Of a stretch of 64,000 bases of DNA, positions 1,447-61,300 are shown in pieces. The translations under genes and the position numbers were made by a program. How positions within the stretch are numbered: the first letter of the stretch is position 1; every line of letters starts with the position of its first letter. The stretch is from Agitococcus sp. (GTDB lineage Bacteria; Pseudomonadota; Gammaproteobacteria; Pseudomonadales; Moraxellaceae), in contig JAUSLJ010000042.1 in the NCBI GenBank assembly GCA_030646715.1, forward strand, positions 124,001 through 188,000, in the 5' to 3' direction. The notes below the pieces were generated by a model, which had not been told where the DNA came from, searched no databases, and saw only the letters and a list, made by a program, of their open reading frames with translations.

Positions 1447-1498
1447 CCTCCGACTCCGCTCAGGGAGCGTTTTGCGTTGGCTGAGCGGAGTCGAAGCC
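1447..1498. repeat. Dispersed palindromic repeat family C, copy 1
   Basis: CGACTCCGCTCAGGGAGCGTTTTGCGTTGGCTGAGCGGAGTCG; reverse complement of 58121-58171 matches at most positions. Confidence 0.8.
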
Positions 1499-17828: not shown

Positions 17829-19049
17829 ATGGAATTCGCCTACTCCGCCAAAGCGCAAGACTACATCACCCGTTTACAAGCTTTTATGGCACAGGAAGTC
17901 TATCCTGCCGAAAAAGCCTATTACGGCGGTTTTAGCCATAGCCCTGACCATACGAAATGGCAACAACCTGAAATCATGGAATCGCTAAAAGCGAAAGCGA
18001 AAGCGGCAGGTTTATGGAATTTGTTTTCGCCTCATGCCGAACACGGATTAAACAACGCTGACTATGCGCCCTTAGCGGAGATTACGGGTCGTTCTTTTAT
18101 TGCCCCAGAAGTCTTTAATTGCAACGCGCCTGATACGGGCAATATGGAAGTGCTGATTAAATACGGCTCTCCCGAACAACAAAAACAGTGGTTAGAGCCA
18201 TTATTAGCAGGTGAAGTTCGCTCAGCATTTTGTATGACTGAACCCGATGTGGCCTCCAGCGATGCCACGAATATGCAAGCCACCGCCATTGTTGAAGGTG
18301 ATGAAGTGGTGCTGAATGGCCGTAAATGGTGGAGTTCAGGCATTGGCCATCCGCACTGTAAAGTGGTTATTTTTATGGGTTTAACCGACCCAACAGCAGA
18401 AAAGCATCGTCAACATTCGATGGTCTTAGTGCCGATGGATGCTGTCGGGGTAAAAATCGAACGGATGTTACCTGTGTTTGGCGTTTATGATGAACCCTTT
18501 GGTCATGGTGAAGTGACGTTTACTAATGTCCGTTTGCCTGTGAGTAGCATTATTGCAGGGGCAGGGCGTGGTTTTGAAATTGCCCAAGGCCGTTTAGGGC
18601 CGGGTCGGATTCATCACTGTATGCGTGCCATTGGTGCGTCTGAACGGGCGTTAGAGTTATTGTGCCAACGTGCCATGACACGGGTGGCATTTGGCAAACC
18701 CTTAGCTAAACTAGGTGGCAATGCCGATATTGTTGCCAATTGTCGGATGGCGATTGAACAGGCGCGGTTGTTGACCTTAAAAGCAGCGTGGATGATGGAT
18801 ACTGTTGGTGTGAAAGGGGCAATGAGCGAAATTTCACAGATTAAAGTGATTGCCCCGAATGTTGCCCAGCAAGTCATTGATGCTGCGATCCAAATTCATG
18901 GTGCGGCAGGTTTGTCGGATGATTTCCCATTAACGGCATTATTTGCCTATGCGCGGGTGTTACGTTTGGCTGATGGGCCTGATGAAGTACATCGTGGGTT
19001 GATTGCGAAGTTGGAATATAAAAAGCAGTTGGCGAAGTTAACCACTTAA
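17829..19049 (+). CDS. Acyl-CoA dehydrogenase (ACAD10/11-like)
   Basis: [53 protein letters not shown]. Confidence 0.93.
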
Positions 19050-19086
19050 CTATTAATGATATAGCGAGTGTGGTTCGCTTTGCCGT

Positions 19087-19190
19087 TGCCTGCCGCAGGC
19101 CTTACTTTTGTTTCGACAAAAGTAAGCAAAACCATTTGTGACGCAAAACTCGGCATCCATGCCTCAAACAGTTGCGTCACAGCATCCCTG
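19087..19190 (+). repeat. Multi-hairpin dispersed repeat family A, copy 1
   Basis: GCCTGCCGCAGGC; CTTACTTTTGTttcgACAAAAGTAAG; GTGACGCAA...TTGCGTCAC; shared with copies at 20368, 22027 and 43417. Confidence 0.9.
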
Positions 19191-19280
19191 CAAAGGCAAA
19201 AAACAAAAGCATAAAATCGTTATAAATATCTACTCTCAGCGTGTACAAGTGTTGAGGGGAAGGCTAACAATAAAAGGATA

Positions 19281-20354
19281 ATGATGGAAAACTTTCTCGA
19301 TAAAGCAGGTTCAGTCCGCAATGGCGAAGAATTAGATCTTGCCCGCATTGATGCTTTTTTGAAAACGCATATTCCCCATTTAGACGGTGAGCCAAGCCTT
19401 GAGCAATTTGCAGGTGGCGCGTCGAATCTGACCTATTTACTGCGTTATCCAGAACGTGATGTTATTTTGCGGCGGCCACCGTTTGGTCATAAAGCCAAAT
19501 CTGCCCATGATATGTTGCGCGAAGCCCATATCATGACCGCTTTGAAACCTGTTTATCATTATGTGCCAACGGTGTTAGCGACTTGCCATGATTCTGAGGT
19601 AATGGATGCCGATTTTTATGTGATGGAACGCATTAACGGCATTATTCCTCGTCAAAACTTACCTAAAGGCCTACAACTTTCGCCCGAAGATACCCGTCAA
19701 TTGTGTTTGAATGTCATTGATAAAATGATTGATTTACATCAAGTCGATTATCAGGCCGCAGGTTTAGCTAATATGGGTAAAGGTGAAGGTTACGTTAAAC
19801 GGCAAATCGAAGGTTGGAGTGACCGTTTTCGTAAATCCCATACACCCGATGTCAGTAGTTTTGAAGCGGTGATGACATGGCTACACGCCAAAATGCCTGC
19901 TCACGATGTCGCGACTTGTTTTATTCATAATGATTTTAGGTTTGATAATGTCGTGCTGAATGCCAACAATCCCTTAGAAGTTATTGGAGTCTTAGATTGG
20001 GAAATGGCGACGTTGGGCGATCCGTTAATGGATTTAGGCAATACCTTAGCCTATTGGGTGCAAGCGGATGATGATGCCACCTTTCAAATGATGCGCCGTC
20101 AACCAACACATTTAGCAGGTATGTTAACGCGTCAAGAAGTGATTGCCTATTATGGTGAAAAAACGGGTTATAAAGTCGATAACTTTGATTTTTATACCAT
20201 TTATGGCTTGTTTCGCTTAGCCGTGATTATTCAGCAGATTTATTACCGTTTTTATCATGGTCAAAGCAAAAATCCCCAATTTGCGGTCTTTGGCAACATG
20301 GCTAATTATTTAGAACAGCGTTGTTTGGGATTAATTGCCCAATCCAGTTTGTGA
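19281..20354 (+). CDS. Phosphotransferase (APH-like kinase) family protein
   Basis: LEQFAGGASNLTYLLR; CFIHNDFRFDNVVLN; VIGVLDWEMATLGDPLMDLG. Confidence 0.92.
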   Translation: MMENFLDKAGSVRNGEELDLARIDAFLKTHIPHLDGEPSLEQFAGGASNLTYLLRYPERDVILRRPPFGHKAKSAHDMLREAHIMTALKPVYHYVPTVLATCHDSEVMDADFYVMERINGIIPRQNLPKGLQLSPEDTRQLCLNVIDKMIDLHQVDYQAAGLANMGKGEGYVKRQIEGWSDRFRKSHTPDVSSFEAVMTWLHAKMPAHDVATCFIHNDFRFDNVVLNANNPLEVIGVLDWEMATLGDPLMDLGNTLAYWVQADDDATFQMMRRQPTHLAGMLTRQEVIAYYGEKTGYKVDNFDFYTIYGLFRLAVIIQQIYYRFYHGQSKNPQFAVFGNMANYLEQRCLGLIAQSSL

Positions 20355-20367
20355 GTTTTGGTATTTT

Positions 20368-20470
20368 AGGGATGATGTGATGTAACTGTTTGAGGCAGGA
20401 TGCCGAGTTTTGCATCACAAAATGGTTTTGCTTACTTTTGTCGTAACAAAAGTAAGGCCTGCGGCCGGCA
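20368..20470 (-). repeat. Multi-hairpin dispersed repeat family A, copy 2 (inverted)
   Basis: Reverse complement TGCCGGCCGCAGGCCTTACTTTTGTTACGACAAAAGTAAGCAAAACCATTTTGTGATGCAAAACTCGGCATCC... Confidence 0.9.
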
Positions 20471-22026: not shown

Positions 22027-22129
22027 TGCCTGCCGCAGGCCTTACTTTTGTTTCGACAAAAGTAAGCAAAACCATGTGTGGCGCAGAACTCGGCATCCTG
22101 CCTCAAACAGCTGCGCCACGTCGTCCCTG
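22027..22129 (+). repeat. Multi-hairpin dispersed repeat family A, copy 3
   Basis: Same architecture as copy 1; stem is GTGGCGCAG...CTGCGCCAC with compensatory changes. Confidence 0.9.
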
Positions 22130-39587: not shown

Positions 39588-39607
39588 TCAAACCATCACT
39601 CTAATTC

Positions 39608-39648
39608 AGCCCCCTCTCCCCGAGGGAGAGGGTTGGGGTGAGGGCTAA
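39608..39648. repeat. Dispersed repeat family D, intergenic copy
   Basis: GCCCCCTCTCCCCGAGGGAGAGGGTTGGGGTGAGGGCTAAC; shares a 21-nt exact block with 59803-59843. Confidence 0.8.
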
Positions 39649-41425: not shown

Positions 41426-42562
41426 ATGCTGATACAACGTTTATTAACGAGTGATAAAGGCGGCATGGTGATGTTGGCGCTGTTAGCTTTGTTGGCGATC
41501 GTCGTGCCAACGCTGAATTTGGTCGTGCCTGTTGAGTCGGCATGGCATTTATCGAGTTATACCGTCACTTTATTGGGCAAGTTTTTGTGTTATGCCTTAT
41601 TGGCCTTGTCTTTAGATTTGATTTGGGGCTATTGCGGCATTTTATCACTCGGACACGGCGCATTTTTTACCCTTGGCGGTTATTGCATGGGCATGTATCT
41701 CATGCGTCAAATTGGTACACGTGGGACGTATGGCAATGCCGAACTGCCCGATTTTATGGTGTTTTTAAACTGGCAAGAGTTGCCTTGGTATTGGTACGGA
41801 TTTAGTAGTTTTCCTTTTGCCATGTTAATGGTTGTCGTTGTGCCTGCGTTATTAGCTTTTGTCTTTGGTTGGTTGGCGTTTCGCTCTCGGGTGACGGGGG
41901 TATATCTATCCATAATCACTCAAGCCTTAACCTTTGCTTTGTTATTAGCGTTTTTTAGAAACGAAATGGGCTTTGGTGGCAACAACGGCCTCACCGATTT
42001 TAAAGAAATTTTAGGCTTTCCTTTAGCGCATGATGGCGTGCGTATAGTGCTGTTTTTAACCTCTATTTTTGCTTTGGCGAGTGCTTACATTGCCTGTCGC
42101 TTTATCGTTACCTCGCGTTTTGGCCGTGTCATTACCGCCATTCGTGATGCCGAAAGTCGCACGCGGTTTTGTGGTTATGCGGTTGAATCTTATAAATTAT
42201 GGTTGTTTGTGTTTTCGGCGATGTTGGCAGGTATTGCAGGAGCGTTGTTTGTGCCGCAAGTGGGCATTATCAATCCTAGTGAGTTTTCACCGTTAAACTC
42301 CATTGAGCAAGTTGTGTGGGTGGCGGTCGGTGGTCGCGGTACGTTATTTGGTGCAGTAACTGGCGCGTTTGCTGTCAATTACAGCAAAACATGGTTGACC
42401 TCAGTTTACCCTGAAGCGTGGTTATTTGCCCTCGGTGCCTTGTTCGTGTTGGTGACTTTATTCTTACCCCAAGGCATCGTTGGTTTAGCTAAAAAACTGA
42501 TGACTAAAGTTAAAACACCAAAAGCTGAAAGTGAAGCGGCTGCAAAAGGAGTCAAAGCATGA
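41426..42562 (+). CDS. urtC: Urea ABC transporter permease UrtC
   Basis: LALSLDLIWGYCGILSLGHGAFFTLGGYCMGMYLM; LivM-type. Confidence 0.95.
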   Translation: MLIQRLLTSDKGGMVMLALLALLAIVVPTLNLVVPVESAWHLSSYTVTLLGKFLCYALLALSLDLIWGYCGILSLGHGAFFTLGGYCMGMYLMRQIGTRGTYGNAELPDFMVFLNWQELPWYWYGFSSFPFAMLMVVVVPALLAFVFGWLAFRSRVTGVYLSIITQALTFALLLAFFRNEMGFGGNNGLTDFKEILGFPLAHDGVRIVLFLTSIFALASAYIACRFIVTSRFGRVITAIRDAESRTRFCGYAVESYKLWLFVFSAMLAGIAGALFVPQVGIINPSEFSPLNSIEQVVWVAVGGRGTLFGAVTGAFAVNYSKTWLTSVYPEAWLFALGALFVLVTLFLPQGIVGLAKKLMTKVKTPKAESEAAAKGVKA

Positions 42563-43389
42563 GTATTTTTTCCATGCCTAAAGTGACGACACGCCGCAAA
42601 GCGGTGAATATGGCCTCTGGCTTGGTTAGCCCCTTAGTCTTAGATACTACGCATGGATCGGTATTGTATTTAGAAGATGTCTCGGTCAGTTTTGATGGTT
42701 TTAAAGCCTTAAATAACTTGTCTTTAGATATTAGCGAAGGCGAACTACGCTGCATCATCGGGCCAAACGGTGCTGGAAAAACGACGATGATGGATGTGAT
42801 AACAGGCAAAACGCGTCCTGATAGTGGAACGGTTTTTTTTGGTCAACACATTGATTTATTAGGCTTAAACGAACAACAAATTGCCAACGCAGGCATAGGC
42901 CGAAAATTTCAAAAGCCCACCGTGTTTGAAGCATTAACAGTATTTGAAAATTTAGAATTAGCGATGTCGTCGAATAAAAGCGTATGGGCGAGTTTGTTTT
43001 ATAAATTATCGGGCGAGCAACAAGATCAAATTGATGAAGTGTTAGCGTTAATTCGTTTGGGCGAGTTGCGTCATCAATTAGCAGGCATTTTGTCACATGG
43101 GCAAAAACAATGGTTAGAAATCGGTATGTTGCTGATGCAAAACCCGCGCGTGTTATTGGTAGATGAGCCCGTTGCAGGCATGACCAGCGAAGAAACCGAA
43201 CGCACGGCAGAATTATTAGTGTCCTTAGCGGGCGCGCATTCGGTGATTGTTGTTGAGCATGACATGGCATTTGTCCGCTCGATTGCCAAAAAAGTCACTG
43301 TTTTGCATCAAGGCTCGGTATTGGCCGAAGGCACAATGGACGAAATACAGGCCAATCCTAAAGTCATTGAAGTCTATTTGGGCGAGTAA
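42559..43389 (+). CDS. urtD: Urea ABC transporter ATP-binding protein UrtD
   Basis: CIIGPNGAGKTTMMDVITGKTRPDSG; LSHGQKQWLEIGMLLMQNPRVLLVDEPVAGM. Confidence 0.95.
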   Translation: MSIFSMPKVTTRRKAVNMASGLVSPLVLDTTHGSVLYLEDVSVSFDGFKALNNLSLDISEGELRCIIGPNGAGKTTMMDVITGKTRPDSGTVFFGQHIDLLGLNEQQIANAGIGRKFQKPTVFEALTVFENLELAMSSNKSVWASLFYKLSGEQQDQIDEVLALIRLGELRHQLAGILSHGQKQWLEIGMLLMQNPRVLLVDEPVAGMTSEETERTAELLVSLAGAHSVIVVEHDMAFVRSIAKKVTVLHQGSVLAEGTMDEIQANPKVIEVYLGE

Positions 43390-43416: not shown

Positions 43417-43521
43417 CAGGGATGATGTGATGCAACTGTTTGAGGCATGGATGCCGAGTTTTGCATCACAAGATGGTTTTGCTGACTTTTGCCGAAACAA
43501 AAGTCAGGCCTGCGGCAGGCA
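43417..43521 (-). repeat. Multi-hairpin dispersed repeat family A, copy 4 (inverted), between urtD and urtE
   Basis: Reverse complement GCCTGCCGCAGGCCTGACTTTTGTTTCGGCAAAAGTCAGCAAAACCATCTTGTGATGCAAAACTCGGCATCCATGCCTCAAACAGTTGCATCAC. Confidence 0.9.
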
Positions 43522-43579: not shown

Positions 43580-44275
43580 ATGTTGCGTGTCGAAAAACTC
43601 AACCAATTTTATGGCCAAAGTCATATCTTGTGGGACTTAGAATTCAACATTAAAGAAGGTTCGTGCGCCTGTTTAATGGGACGTAACGGCGTCGGCAAAA
43701 CCACCTTTTTAAAATGTTTAATGGGTTTATTACCGAGCAAAACTGGCGATATTTTTTTCAATGGTCAATCTTTAACAGGCATATCTACCGAGCAACGTGC
43801 GCGTCAAGGTTTAGGATATGTGCCCCAAGGCCGCGAGATTTTTCCGCTACTGACCGTCGAAGAAAACCTAAAAATTTCTTTAGGGGTACGTAAAGACAAA
43901 GCCAAACAAGTACCGAGCCATATTTACGAGTTATTTCCTGTGTTAAAAGAAATGCGTCAACGGCGTGGCGGCGATTTATCGGGTGGTCAGCAACAACAAC
44001 TTGCCATTGGTCGCGCTTTGGTATTAGAGCCTAAGTTATTGATTTTAGATGAACCCACCGAAGGGATTCAGCCAAATATTGTGCGGGATATTGGTGGCGT
44101 GATTCGTAAGTTAAACAGCGAACACGGTATTACCGTATTGTTGGTTGAACAAAAGTTACCTTTTGCGCGTGCTTATGCCACTGATTTTCATATTTTGAAT
44201 AAAGGTCGTTTGGTCGCGGAAGGTGAGATTAGTGAATTGAGTGATGAGATTGTCAAAGAGTATTTGAGTGTGTGA
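43580..44275 (+). CDS. urtE: Urea ABC transporter ATP-binding protein UrtE
   Basis: CLMGRNGVGKTTFLKCLMGLLPSKTG; LSGGQQQQLAIGRALVLEPKLLILDEPTEGIQPNIV. Confidence 0.95.
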   Translation: MLRVEKLNQFYGQSHILWDLEFNIKEGSCACLMGRNGVGKTTFLKCLMGLLPSKTGDIFFNGQSLTGISTEQRARQGLGYVPQGREIFPLLTVEENLKISLGVRKDKAKQVPSHIYELFPVLKEMRQRRGGDLSGGQQQQLAIGRALVLEPKLLILDEPTEGIQPNIVRDIGGVIRKLNSEHGITVLLVEQKLPFARAYATDFHILNKGRLVAEGEISELSDEIVKEYLSV

Positions 44276-58120: not shown

Positions 58121-58171
58121 GCTTCGACTCCGCTCAGCAGACGTAAAACGCTCCCTAAGCGGAGTCGAAGG
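58121..58171. repeat. Dispersed palindromic repeat family C, copy 2 (inverted relative to copy 1)
   Basis: GCTTCGACTCCGCTCAGCAGACGTAAAACGCTCCCTAAGCGGAGTCGAAGG. Confidence 0.8.
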
Positions 58172-58370: not shown

Positions 58371-61300
58371 ATGACCACTTATCACAAGCCCGAACTCTAT
58401 CAACCTGCCAACAAAGTCCGTTTTGTCACGGCGGCGAGTCTGTTTGATGGCCACGACGCCGCCATTAACATTATGCGTCGGATGTTGCAGGCAACGGGCT
58501 GTGAGGTGATTCATTTAGGCCATAACCGTTCGGTCGATGAAATTGTCACCTGCGCCTTACAAGAAGACGCACACGGCATTGCCATTAGCTCGTATCAAGG
58601 TGGTCATAACGAGTTTTTTGCTTATATGATTGACCTGCTGAACGAGCGCGGCTTAGGTCATGTCAAAGTGTTTGGCGGTGGTGGTGGCGTGATTGTGCCG
58701 AGCGAAATTAAAGCCTTACAAGCCTATGGCGTAACGCGGATTTTCTCCCCCGAAGACGGTGCAAAAATTGGCTTACAAGGCATGATTAACCAATGTGCCG
58801 AAGGCGCAGATCAAGATTTAGCACATCAATATCCTGCTGATTTCAGTGATTTAGCGTCGGATGACACTATTGTCCGTCATCGTACTTTAGCGAGGATTAT
58901 TTCAGCCTTAGAAGCAGGCGTATTGCCGTATAAAGATGAGTTATTAAGGGCTTCCATTCCAAAAACAACGCCCGTCATTGGTATTACAGGCACGGGTGGC
59001 GCAGGTAAATCGAGTTTGACCGATGAAGTGTTACGTCGCTTCCGTTTGGATTTTAATGACCAAGTCAATATCGCGATTATTTCCATTGACCCATCACGCC
59101 GTAAATCAGGCGGCGCGTTATTGGGCGATAGAATCCGTATGAACGCCATTCATCATCCCAATATTTATATGCGTTCGTTGGCGACGCGCAGTACAGGCGG
59201 TGAGATTTCTCAAGCCTTACCCGATGTGATTGCTGCCTGCAAAGTCGCTGGTTTTGATTTAATCATTGTCGAAACATCAGGTATAGGGCAGGGTGATGCC
59301 GCAATTGTACCGTTTGTCGATTTGTCCTTATATGTGATGACTCCCGAATTTGGTGCCGCCTCGCAACTGGAAAAAATCGATATGCTCGATTTTGCCGATA
59401 TTGTCGCCATTAACAAATTCGATCGTAAAGGCGCAAAAGATGCGCAACGTGATGTCTGTAAACAAGTGCAACGCAACCGCGAAGCCTTTATGCAAATGCC
59501 CGACACCATGCCTGTCTTTGGCACCATTGCCGCCCGTTTTAATGATGACGGCGTCACCGCGCTCTATCAGCAATTAAAAACCGACTTAATCGCTAAAGGT
59601 TGGCAAGCCCCGAGCGCAAGTCAATTACCCGTAGTGACAGTGCGCGCTTCGAGCCAGCAACATACCATTGTCCCAGCCCAACGCGTCCGTTACTTGGCAG
59701 AGATTGCCGATGGTGTGCGTGGTTATCATGCGTGGGTTGAAGCACAGGCGCAATTAGCCCGTGAACGTCAGCAGTTACGCGCTACTCAACGGATGTTAAG
59801 TGAGGCTCCCTCTCCTGTGGGAGAGGGTTGGGGTGAGGGCTTAACGCAACTCATTACCCAAAAAGATGGGCAATTAACCCTAGAATCCAAACAACTCTTA
59901 AACCGTTGGCCTGAGCTAAAACAACGTTACGCACAAGATGAATTAGTGGTCAAAATTCGTGATAAAGAACTGCGGACGCAATTAACGTACACCAGTTTAT
60001 CAGGCTCTAAAATTCCAAAAGTGTCGTTGCCAAAATTCCACGATGACGGCGATATTTTAGCGTGGCAACTACGCGAAAACATTGCAGGTGAGTTTCCCTT
60101 TACCGCAGGCGTATTCCCCTTTAAACGTGAAGGCGAAGACCCCACGCGGATGTTTGCAGGCGAGGGTGATGCTTTTAGAACCAATGCTCGTTTTAAACGT
60201 GTTTCCGAAGGCATGCCTGCCAAACGTCTATCAACAGCTTTCGATTCCGTGACTTTATACGGCAATGACCCGCACGAACGACCTGATATTTATGGCAAAG
60301 TCGGTAATTCGGGCGTGTCGATTGCCACCTTAGAAGACATGAAAGTATTGTATAGCGGCTTTGATTTAACCAACCCCATGACTTCGGTATCCATGACCAT
60401 CAATGGCCCTGCACCGACAATTTTGGCGATGTTTTTGAATACGGCAATCCAGCAAAATGTGGATAAGTATGTGGATAAAAATAAAAAACAGCCTTCAGAT
60501 AGTGAATTGGCGCAAATAACAACATGGACGCTAGAGAACGTACGCGGCACGGTGCAAGCGGATATTCTGAAAGAAGACCAGGGGCAAAATACCTGCATTT
60601 TCTCCACTGAATTTAGCTTAAAAGTGATGGGTGATATTCAACAATATTTTGTCGAAAATCGAGTGCGGAACTTTTATTCGGTGTCGATTTCGGGTTATCA
60701 CATTGCTGAAGCAGGCGCGAACCCGATTTCGCAATTGGCCTTTACACTGGCGAATGGCTTTACCTTTGTTGAAGCTTATTTAGCGCGTGGTATGAGCATT
60801 GACGATTTTGCCCCGAATTTATCATTCTTCTTTAGTAATGGTATGGATCCTGAATATACCGTGTTAGGCCGTGTCGCGCGTCGTATTTGGGCAATTACCA
60901 TGCGGCAAAAATACGGTGCAAACGAGCGTAGCCAAAAACTGAAATATCATATTCAAACCAGTGGCCGTAGTCTTCATGCCCAAGAGATTGATTTTAATGA
61001 TATTCGTACCACTTTACAGGCGTTAATTGCTATTTACGATAACTGTAACAGCTTACACACCAACGCCTTTGACGAAGCGATTACCACCCCGACCGAAGAC
61101 AGCGTGCGTAGGGCAATGGCGATTCAGTTGATTATCAACCGTGAATGGGGCTTGGCGAAAAACGAAAACCCGAATCAAGGCAGTTTTATCATTGATGAAT
61201 TAACAGACTTGGTGGAAGAAGCAGTATTAAAAGAATTTGAAGCGATTAGCGAGCGTGGTGGTGTGTTGGGAGCAATGGAAACAGGCTATCAACGCGGCAA

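What the first reader, a model, noticed from the sequence alone, without database searches (positions are those of the whole stretch)
19087..19190. A ~100-bp, three- to four-hairpin dispersed repeat (family A) with compensatory base changes across four copies
Four copies (19087-19190 +, 20368-20470 -, 22027-22129 +, 43417-43521 -) share one layout: GCCTGC-CGCAGGC palindrome, 10-11 bp stem CTTACTTTTGT/ACAAAAGTAAG, linker GCAAAACCAT, stem GTGACGCAA/TTGCGTCAC enclosing GGCATCCATGCC. Stems change in paired fashion: GTGACGCAA/TTGCGTCAC (copy 1), GTGGCGCAG/CTGCGCCAC (copy 3), GTGATGCAA/TTGCATCAC (copy 4); and CTTAC../..GTAAG versus CTGAC../..GTCAG (copy 4). Paired change in two stems implies selection on the folded DNA or RNA. 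All four begin 14-38 bp after a stop codon. Possible roles: operon-internal processing/attenuation element, MITE-like element, or nucleoid-protein/gyrase site.
Basis: seen in the sequence. Interest (0 to 1): 0.75.

Follow-up and report, generated by a model that had tools for sequence, protein, structure and literature searches.

The report
Folded DNA module in mobile repeats
The four repeats are copies of an apparently undescribed, three-hairpin module that is scattered by transposon-like elements through Agitococcus, Acinetobacter and their relatives, sits in the gaps after genes in either orientation, and keeps its base pairing even where it has stayed at the same site in different species.

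Summary
Observation confirmed. The window (an Agitococcus-like Moraxellaceae) has exactly four copies, and its genome has 12. Across genera the family is: hairpin P1; hairpin P2 (CTTACTTTTGT-TTCG-ACAAAAGTAAG); near-invariant CAAAACC; covarying stem P3; AACTCG; variable loop (10-92 nt); CTCRRACA. Paired change is real: 15 of 26 pairs in a family alignment and 12 of 25 in Acinetobacter, reached by 0/500 shuffles. Paired changes also occur between orthologous copies at fixed sites.

It is not an operon-specific cis element. Copies lie sense or antisense to flanking genes (29:44), avoid divergent gaps, and occupy the same gap in opposite orientation in related species. It is a MITE-like mobile repeat. 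One Acinetobacter carries it in ~303-bp elements with inverted ends and TTA/TAA target duplications. A. lubricus carries it in elements with different ends and mostly TA duplications. A tyrosine-transposase/REP origin is not supported. No Rfam family matches and I found no paper describing it.

Unusual: one folded core within unrelated inverted-repeat ends, and stem mismatches that are G-U on the complementary strand (20:3), suggesting that strand is the one that folds. The core's function remains unproven.

The parts
19087..19186 (+). Copy 1 of the family-A element, between the ORFs 17829-19049 and 19281-20354
   Evidence: CM R1 E=9.6e-27; no element at the orthologous A. lubricus gap, which holds other repeats
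19088..19100 (+). Copy 1, P1 hairpin GCCTG-CCG-CAGGC
   Evidence: sequence; P1 varies between genera (AACC-TTC-GGTT in Acinetobacter) with one pair changed on both sides
19101..19126 (+). Copy 1, P2 hairpin CTTACTTTTGT-TTCG-ACAAAAGTAAG
   Evidence: sequence; 5 of 11 pairs changed on both sides in A2
19127..19133 (+). Copy 1, near-invariant linker CAAAACC
   Evidence: invariant in the family alignment A2; copy L012 of the own genome has CAAAATC
19138..19146 (+). Copy 1, P3 5' arm GTGACGCAA
   Evidence: all 10 P3 pairs changed on both sides in A2
19147..19152 (+). Copy 1, invariant unpaired motif AACTCG
   Evidence: invariant in A2
19153..19162 (+). Copy 1, variable apical part (GCATCCATGC here; 59-92 nt in other genomes and in two copies of this genome)
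19163..19170 (+). Copy 1, conserved unpaired motif CTCAAACA (CTCRRACA)
19172..19180 (+). Copy 1, P3 3' arm TTGCGTCAC
19080..19202 (+). Probable full extent of copy 1: short imperfect inverted ends TTTGCCgTTGC ... GCAAAGGCAAA
   Evidence: alignment of own-genome copies and their ends; no target duplication found
20371..20470 (-). Copy 2, 14 bp after the stop of ORF 19281-20354; one C/A mismatch in P3
   Evidence: E=3.4e-23; orthologous A. lubricus gap is empty (stop to start about 20 bp)
22027..22125 (+). Copy 3, between two short-chain-dehydrogenase-like ORFs
   Evidence: E=1.5e-25; orthologous copy kept in A. lubricus (L104) while flanking intergenic DNA is not alignable
43421..43521 (-). Copy 4, between the ORFs 42559-43389 and 43580-44275; P2 changed in pairs to CTGAC/GTCAG
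   Evidence: E=4.4e-26; orthologous A. lubricus gap has no element

Best explanation
Family A is a non-autonomous, MITE-like mobile repeat whose conserved part is a folded module: P1, P2, CAAAACC, then P3 closed over a variable loop between AACTCG and CTCRRACA. Shown: copies lie within inverted-repeat elements with 3-bp TTA/TAA duplications in one Acinetobacter genome. Copies lie within inverted-repeat elements with different ends and mostly TA duplications in A. lubricus. At least two window copies are absent from the orthologous gap of A. lubricus. Copies avoid divergent promoter gaps and ignore gene direction. Pairing is preserved by double changes between orthologous copies. Inferred: transposases encoded elsewhere act on the ends, and different transposases do so in different hosts. 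Inferred: insertions survive mainly downstream of genes, where they are tolerated.
For: Twelve copies in the own genome, and 116 of 298 sampled Moraxellaceae genomes with a match. Covariation in two alignments. Acinetobacter G282: 12 of 14 complete elements have matching TTA/TAA duplications, including all 6 with an intact core. A. lubricus: ends ACCTGAGTTCGGGATAA, with TA on both sides in 4 of 5 complete core-bearing copies, and a related element with the same ends and other cargo in G002. Two orthologous gaps in A. lubricus are empty, the copy-1 gap lacks the element, and copy 3 is shared. Divergent gaps 6 of 105 against 32 of 114 control gaps, p = 1e-5. Sense 29, antisense 44. Ortholog pairs show 49 double Watson-Crick changes, 34 single A-C and 0 single G-U cells. 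Distinct interior mismatches: 20 A-C against 3 G-U as written.
Against: No autonomous parent transposon was identified. In the window's own genome the ends are short and no target duplication was seen. In the Fluviicoccus genome the repeat seems to be little more than the core, without clear inverted ends. DDE transposition does not need an internal fold, so mobility alone does not explain why the core is conserved. Cells and distinct sequences are not independent events, so the strand-asymmetry p-value (0.0005) is optimistic. No transcript or cleavage data were available.
Confidence: 0.6

Rival explanations
1. Operon-internal cis-acting RNA (attenuator, processing or stability element) for the gene next to it, as the first reader suggested first.
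For: All four window copies lie between co-directional genes shortly after a stop codon. In loci from many species the element lies in tandem gaps more often than elsewhere (73 of 105).
Against: In the window two copies are sense and two antisense. Overall 29 sense and 44 antisense. At four orthologous gaps related species carry it in opposite orientation. The gene neighbours have nothing in common.
Confidence: 0.12
2. REP/BIME-type repeat moved by a REP-associated tyrosine (Y1) transposase recognising the hairpins as single-stranded DNA.
For: Intergenic hairpin repeats in tandem gaps resemble REPs. Low-scoring Y1 genes of RAYT size exist in several carrier genomes (G001, G014, G027, G068, G485).
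Against: 17 of 18 Acinetobacter genomes that carry the element, including the one with recent amplification, have no PF01797 match. None of 20 Y1 gene neighbourhoods contains a core. Target duplications of 3 and 2 bp are not expected for Y1 transposition.
Confidence: 0.05
3. Paired changes are made by mutation, not selection: template switching within the quasi-palindromes copies one arm onto the other, so stems stay matched although the fold does nothing. The repeats are then inert transposon relics.
For: P2 flips between C-G and G-C without a wobble intermediate (position 9), even between closely related orthologues (L281 against L236 and L239). Watson-Crick pairs dominate and G-U is rare on the written strand.
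Against: The unpaired motifs CAAAACC, AACTCG, CTCRRACA and, in Acinetobacter, TCGCAGAAACA stay nearly invariant while the adjacent loop turns over. P3 arms are up to about 110 nt apart. Leftover mismatches are strand-asymmetric (20:3), which mutation between arms does not predict.
Confidence: 0.2
4. A stand-alone small RNA gene family (for example C4-like antisense RNAs) with its own promoter that has multiplied.
For: A. baumannii has multi-copy sRNA families, one homologous to the phage C4 antisense RNA (PMC5320573). The element is a conserved fold with a variable loop that could pair with targets.
Against: No match to C4 or any other of 4227 Rfam families at gathering score. The best sub-threshold match is 13.7 bits. 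No promoter is shared across genera, and 5' flanks differ between hosts.
Confidence: 0.13

Closest known systems
TA- or TNA-duplicating prokaryotic MITEs (ERIC/IRU, Correia/NEMIS and similar; comparison from general knowledge)
   Same: Short, non-coding, intergenic, imperfect inverted ends, short A/T target duplication, large hairpins
   Different: Here the same folded core is found within unrelated inverted ends in different hosts, and has invariant unpaired motifs and a hypervariable apical loop
MITEAba12 (PMC6382973), the Moraxellaceae MITE described in Acinetobacter
   Same: Non-autonomous repeat of about 110 bp in Acinetobacter
   Different: Ends GGCTTTGTTGCACAAA with 9-bp duplications; family A has other ends and 3-bp or 2-bp duplications
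REP/BIME repeats with RAYT transposases (GTAG and CGTC families, PMC3733652)
   Same: Dispersed palindromes in non-promoter intergenic gaps
   Different: About 100-390 bp rather than 20-40 bp; no RAYT in most Acinetobacter carriers; none flanks a Y1 gene
BOX elements of Streptococcus pneumoniae (comparison from general knowledge)
   Same: Modular intergenic repeat with a conserved outer fold and variable inside
   Different: No sequence relation was tested; different phylum
C4 antisense RNA / Group 1 sRNAs of A. baumannii (PMC5320573)
   Same: Multi-copy folded sequence in Acinetobacter with a variable loop
   Different: No Rfam match of family A to C4; architecture differs

Membership tests
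MITE (non-autonomous DDE-type element) | Terminal inverted repeats | tested here: met
   Acinetobacter G282: TACCATTC.../...GATTGGTA. A. lubricus: ACCTGAGTTCGGGATAA. In the own genome only a short imperfect TTTGCC-TTGC pair
MITE (non-autonomous DDE-type element) | Target-site duplication | tested here: met
   G282: 12 of 14 TTA or TAA on both sides. A. lubricus: TA in 4 of 5. Not seen for the window copies
MITE (non-autonomous DDE-type element) | Small, no transposase gene | tested here: met
   About 100-390 bp in Moraxellaceae; only short chance ORFs overlap
MITE (non-autonomous DDE-type element) | Autonomous relative with the same ends | tested here: inconclusive
   End-pattern searches in G282 and in G000-G002 returned only non-autonomous copies or solo ends; the assemblies are partly fragmented
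REP/BIME mobilised by RAYT | 20-40 bp palindrome tagged GTAG or CGTC | tested here: not met
   Core of about 100-160 bp with three hairpins
REP/BIME mobilised by RAYT | Y1 transposase gene in the genome, flanked by the repeats | tested here: not met
   PF01797 absent from 17 of 18 Acinetobacter carriers; 20 Y1 neighbourhoods without a core
MITEAba12 | Ends GGCTTTGTTGCACAAA, 9-bp duplication | tested here: not met
   Other ends and duplications
C4 antisense RNA (RF01695) or any other Rfam family | Match at gathering score | tested here: not met
   0 matches in the window and in 9 carrier loci
Cis-regulatory structured RNA | Consistent orientation to a regulated gene | tested here: not met
   29 sense, 44 antisense; opposite orientations at the same gap
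Cis-regulatory structured RNA | Transcription and effect on the neighbouring gene | not testable with these tools
   No expression data

The most novel reading that the evidence does not exclude
A single portable RNA-folding module, read from the strand opposite to the one first described, is under selection at fixed chromosomal sites. It has been adopted as cargo by unrelated families of miniature transposons across Gammaproteobacteria and is replaced in place, sometimes in the opposite orientation, when lost.
Probability: 0.25. Interest if true: 0.8.

Novelty: new variant of a known kind. Interest (0 to 1): 0.52.

Why it matters
Many intergenic hairpin repeats are dismissed as inert MITE relics. 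Here one folded core recurs within unrelated transposon ends, its pairing is repaired at fixed orthologous sites, and its unpaired motifs outlast a fast-changing loop. That makes it directly testable whether such cores have a role, and on which strand. The covariance model from this work lets the family be annotated in Acinetobacter, including A. baumannii, where a public record of it carries no annotation at the site.

Tried and rejected
Rfam gathering-score scans and one permissive scan: nothing. Search of full-text papers for the core strings: only chance hits in unrelated papers. Stem-loop repeat surveys PMC2267715, PMC3733652 and PMC1590033 contain no mention of Acinetobacter. Y1/RAYT as mobiliser: rejected for Acinetobacter. 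Hypervariable loop as a captured 'spacer': rejected because in Acinetobacter the loops are alignable and share TCGCAGAAACA. Phage or plasmid cargo: only 8 phage-collection records and 4 plasmid-collection records, all Acinetobacter, three of the four at or near whole-chromosome size; the phage-collection contigs were not examined. Promoter within the element: looked for by eye on both strands, not convincing. One protein-family call failed on a malformed reference.

Full report
WHERE. The window is contig positions 124001-188000 of a 4.2-Mb Moraxellaceae assembly. A protein of its branched-chain transport region is 75% identical to Agitococcus lubricus. Relative G001 has a contig of exactly the A. 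lubricus DSM 5822 contig length, so I treat G001 as that species.

OBSERVATION. The four copies, their strands and the paired changes are as described, with small corrections: loop GGCATCCTGCC in copies 2 and 3, and one C/A mismatch in copy 2. A covariance model scores them at E = 1e-26 to 3e-23 and finds no fifth full copy in the window. Chance expectation of the core string is 0.1. The genome has 12 copies, two of them with about 80 extra bases in the loop of the third stem.

ANATOMY. Copies from other genera define the family: P1 hairpin; P2 hairpin of 11 bp with a four-base loop, usually TTCG; CAAAACC; P3 stem of about 10 bp; AACTCG; a variable loop (9-10 or 91-92 nt in Agitococcus, 58-70 nt elsewhere, mostly 59-61); CTCRRACA; P3 return arm. 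In Acinetobacter the loop also keeps TCGCAGAAACA.

COVARIATION. In 23 sequences from several genera, 15 of 26 pairs change on both sides, including all ten P3 pairs. All five measures exceed at least 497 of 500 shuffles, and all slid controls are far lower (the structure was chosen on these sequences, so the percentage paired leans towards it). In 34 Acinetobacter copies, 12 of 25 pairs change on both sides and 98% of cells pair. I grouped copies by both flanks into 14 groups. One of these is two copies on the same contig rather than orthologues (both L133). Between members of these groups there are 49 double Watson-Crick changes, 34 single A-C, 0 single G-U and 13 other cells. Counts are sequence pairs, not events.

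WHICH STRAND. If the written strand folded as RNA, leftover mismatches should be mostly G-U. Among distinct stem sequences, interior mismatches are 20 A-C against 3 G-U (binomial p 0.0005, optimistic because of shared ancestry; 11:3 when collapsed by position and type). On the complementary strand these are G-U. This suggests, but does not prove, that the complementary strand is the one that folds.

DISTRIBUTION. Elsewhere matches are weaker: 7 of 246 in the order sample and 17 of 274 in the class sample, own genome included in both. Those elements share P2 and the CAAAA linker but have a longer, nested third domain. Whether they are one family is open.

MOBILITY. In A. lubricus the gaps of window copies 2 and 4 are empty, the copy-1 gap holds other repeats instead, and copy 3 is shared. 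In Acinetobacter genome G282, 14 complete elements of 302-387 bp have inverted ends TACCATTC/GATTGGTA, and 12 of 14 have matching TTA or TAA duplications. Six of the 14 carry the intact core (all six with matching duplications); the others carry a changed hairpin region. In A. lubricus the ends are ACCTGAGTTCGGGATAA with TA on both sides in four of five complete core-bearing copies (read from the sequences). In G002 the same ends enclose other cargo. In genome G485 cores lie in composites of about 800-870 bp with ends TGAYACCGGACTGGCAAGTTTG. So one core occurs within several unrelated sets of ends. Y1/RAYT transposition is not supported.

CONTEXT. Elements lie in gaps between genes: 73 tandem, 26 convergent, 6 divergent, against 53, 29 and 32 for other gaps in the same loci (Fisher p = 1e-5; simple ORF calling). 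Within tandem gaps 29 are sense and 44 antisense (p = 0.10, not significant). In four pairs of related species, at three or more orthologous gaps, the element lies in opposite orientation with collinear flanks. Their stems differ too, so replacement by an independent insertion is likelier than simple inversion.

HOW IT MOST LIKELY WORKS. Shown: a dispersed structured repeat; presence within inverted-repeat elements with target duplications in two genomes; turnover of sites; preserved pairing at old sites; no fixed orientation to genes. Inferred: transposases supplied in trans move it; survivors are insertions away from promoters; and the core is kept because a folded strand, probably the complementary transcript, is useful to the element or to its neighbours. 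The last step is the weakest. Template-switch mutation is the main rival for part of the paired changes, since P2 flips C-G to G-C even between close orthologues (L281 against L236 and L239).

KNOWN OR NEW. No Rfam match, no paper holding the core strings, and different from MITEAba12 and from GTAG/CGTC REPs. Absence from an open-access library is not proof of novelty. It works like a MITE, and in two genomes it meets the defining features; in the window's own genome target duplications were not shown. I file it as a new variant of a known kind.

Noticed in passing
window 1448-1496 and 58122-58170: A second dispersed repeat, CTCCGACTCCGCTCAGGGAGCG..., in two copies (73% identity); related sequence also fills the A. 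lubricus gap where window copy 1 would be.
   Followed up: no
window 39602-39646 and 59797-59841: A third repeat, CCCTCTCCC...GGGAGAGGG, in two copies; in G002 contig C78 (L372) a similar sequence is enclosed by the same inverted ends that carry family A in A. lubricus.
   Followed up: partly
L344, L346, L348, L350, L352-L354, L356 (Acinetobacter G282): Eight copies of the ~330-390-bp element have part of the P2-P3 region replaced by another hairpin module (GCAAAATGAGCAGTGAAACTGCGCAAGAAAACCACC...), three of them also around P1: modular swapping inside one MITE.
   Followed up: partly
L276/L151, L145/L148, L275/L274, L147/L258: Orthologous intergenic gaps in related Acinetobacter species carry the element in opposite orientations; two of these pairs are at one locus, between a response-regulator-like gene end and a gene starting MKLDPIDPQKF.
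   Followed up: partly
L297-L310 (G485): Composites of about 800-870 bp in which two different cores lie head to head inside long inverted ends.
   Followed up: partly
L322-L341: Y1 transposase genes of several sizes (about 120-240 aa) occur in Moraxellaceae and other carrier genomes without the family-A core nearby; what repeats they serve was not examined.
   Followed up: no
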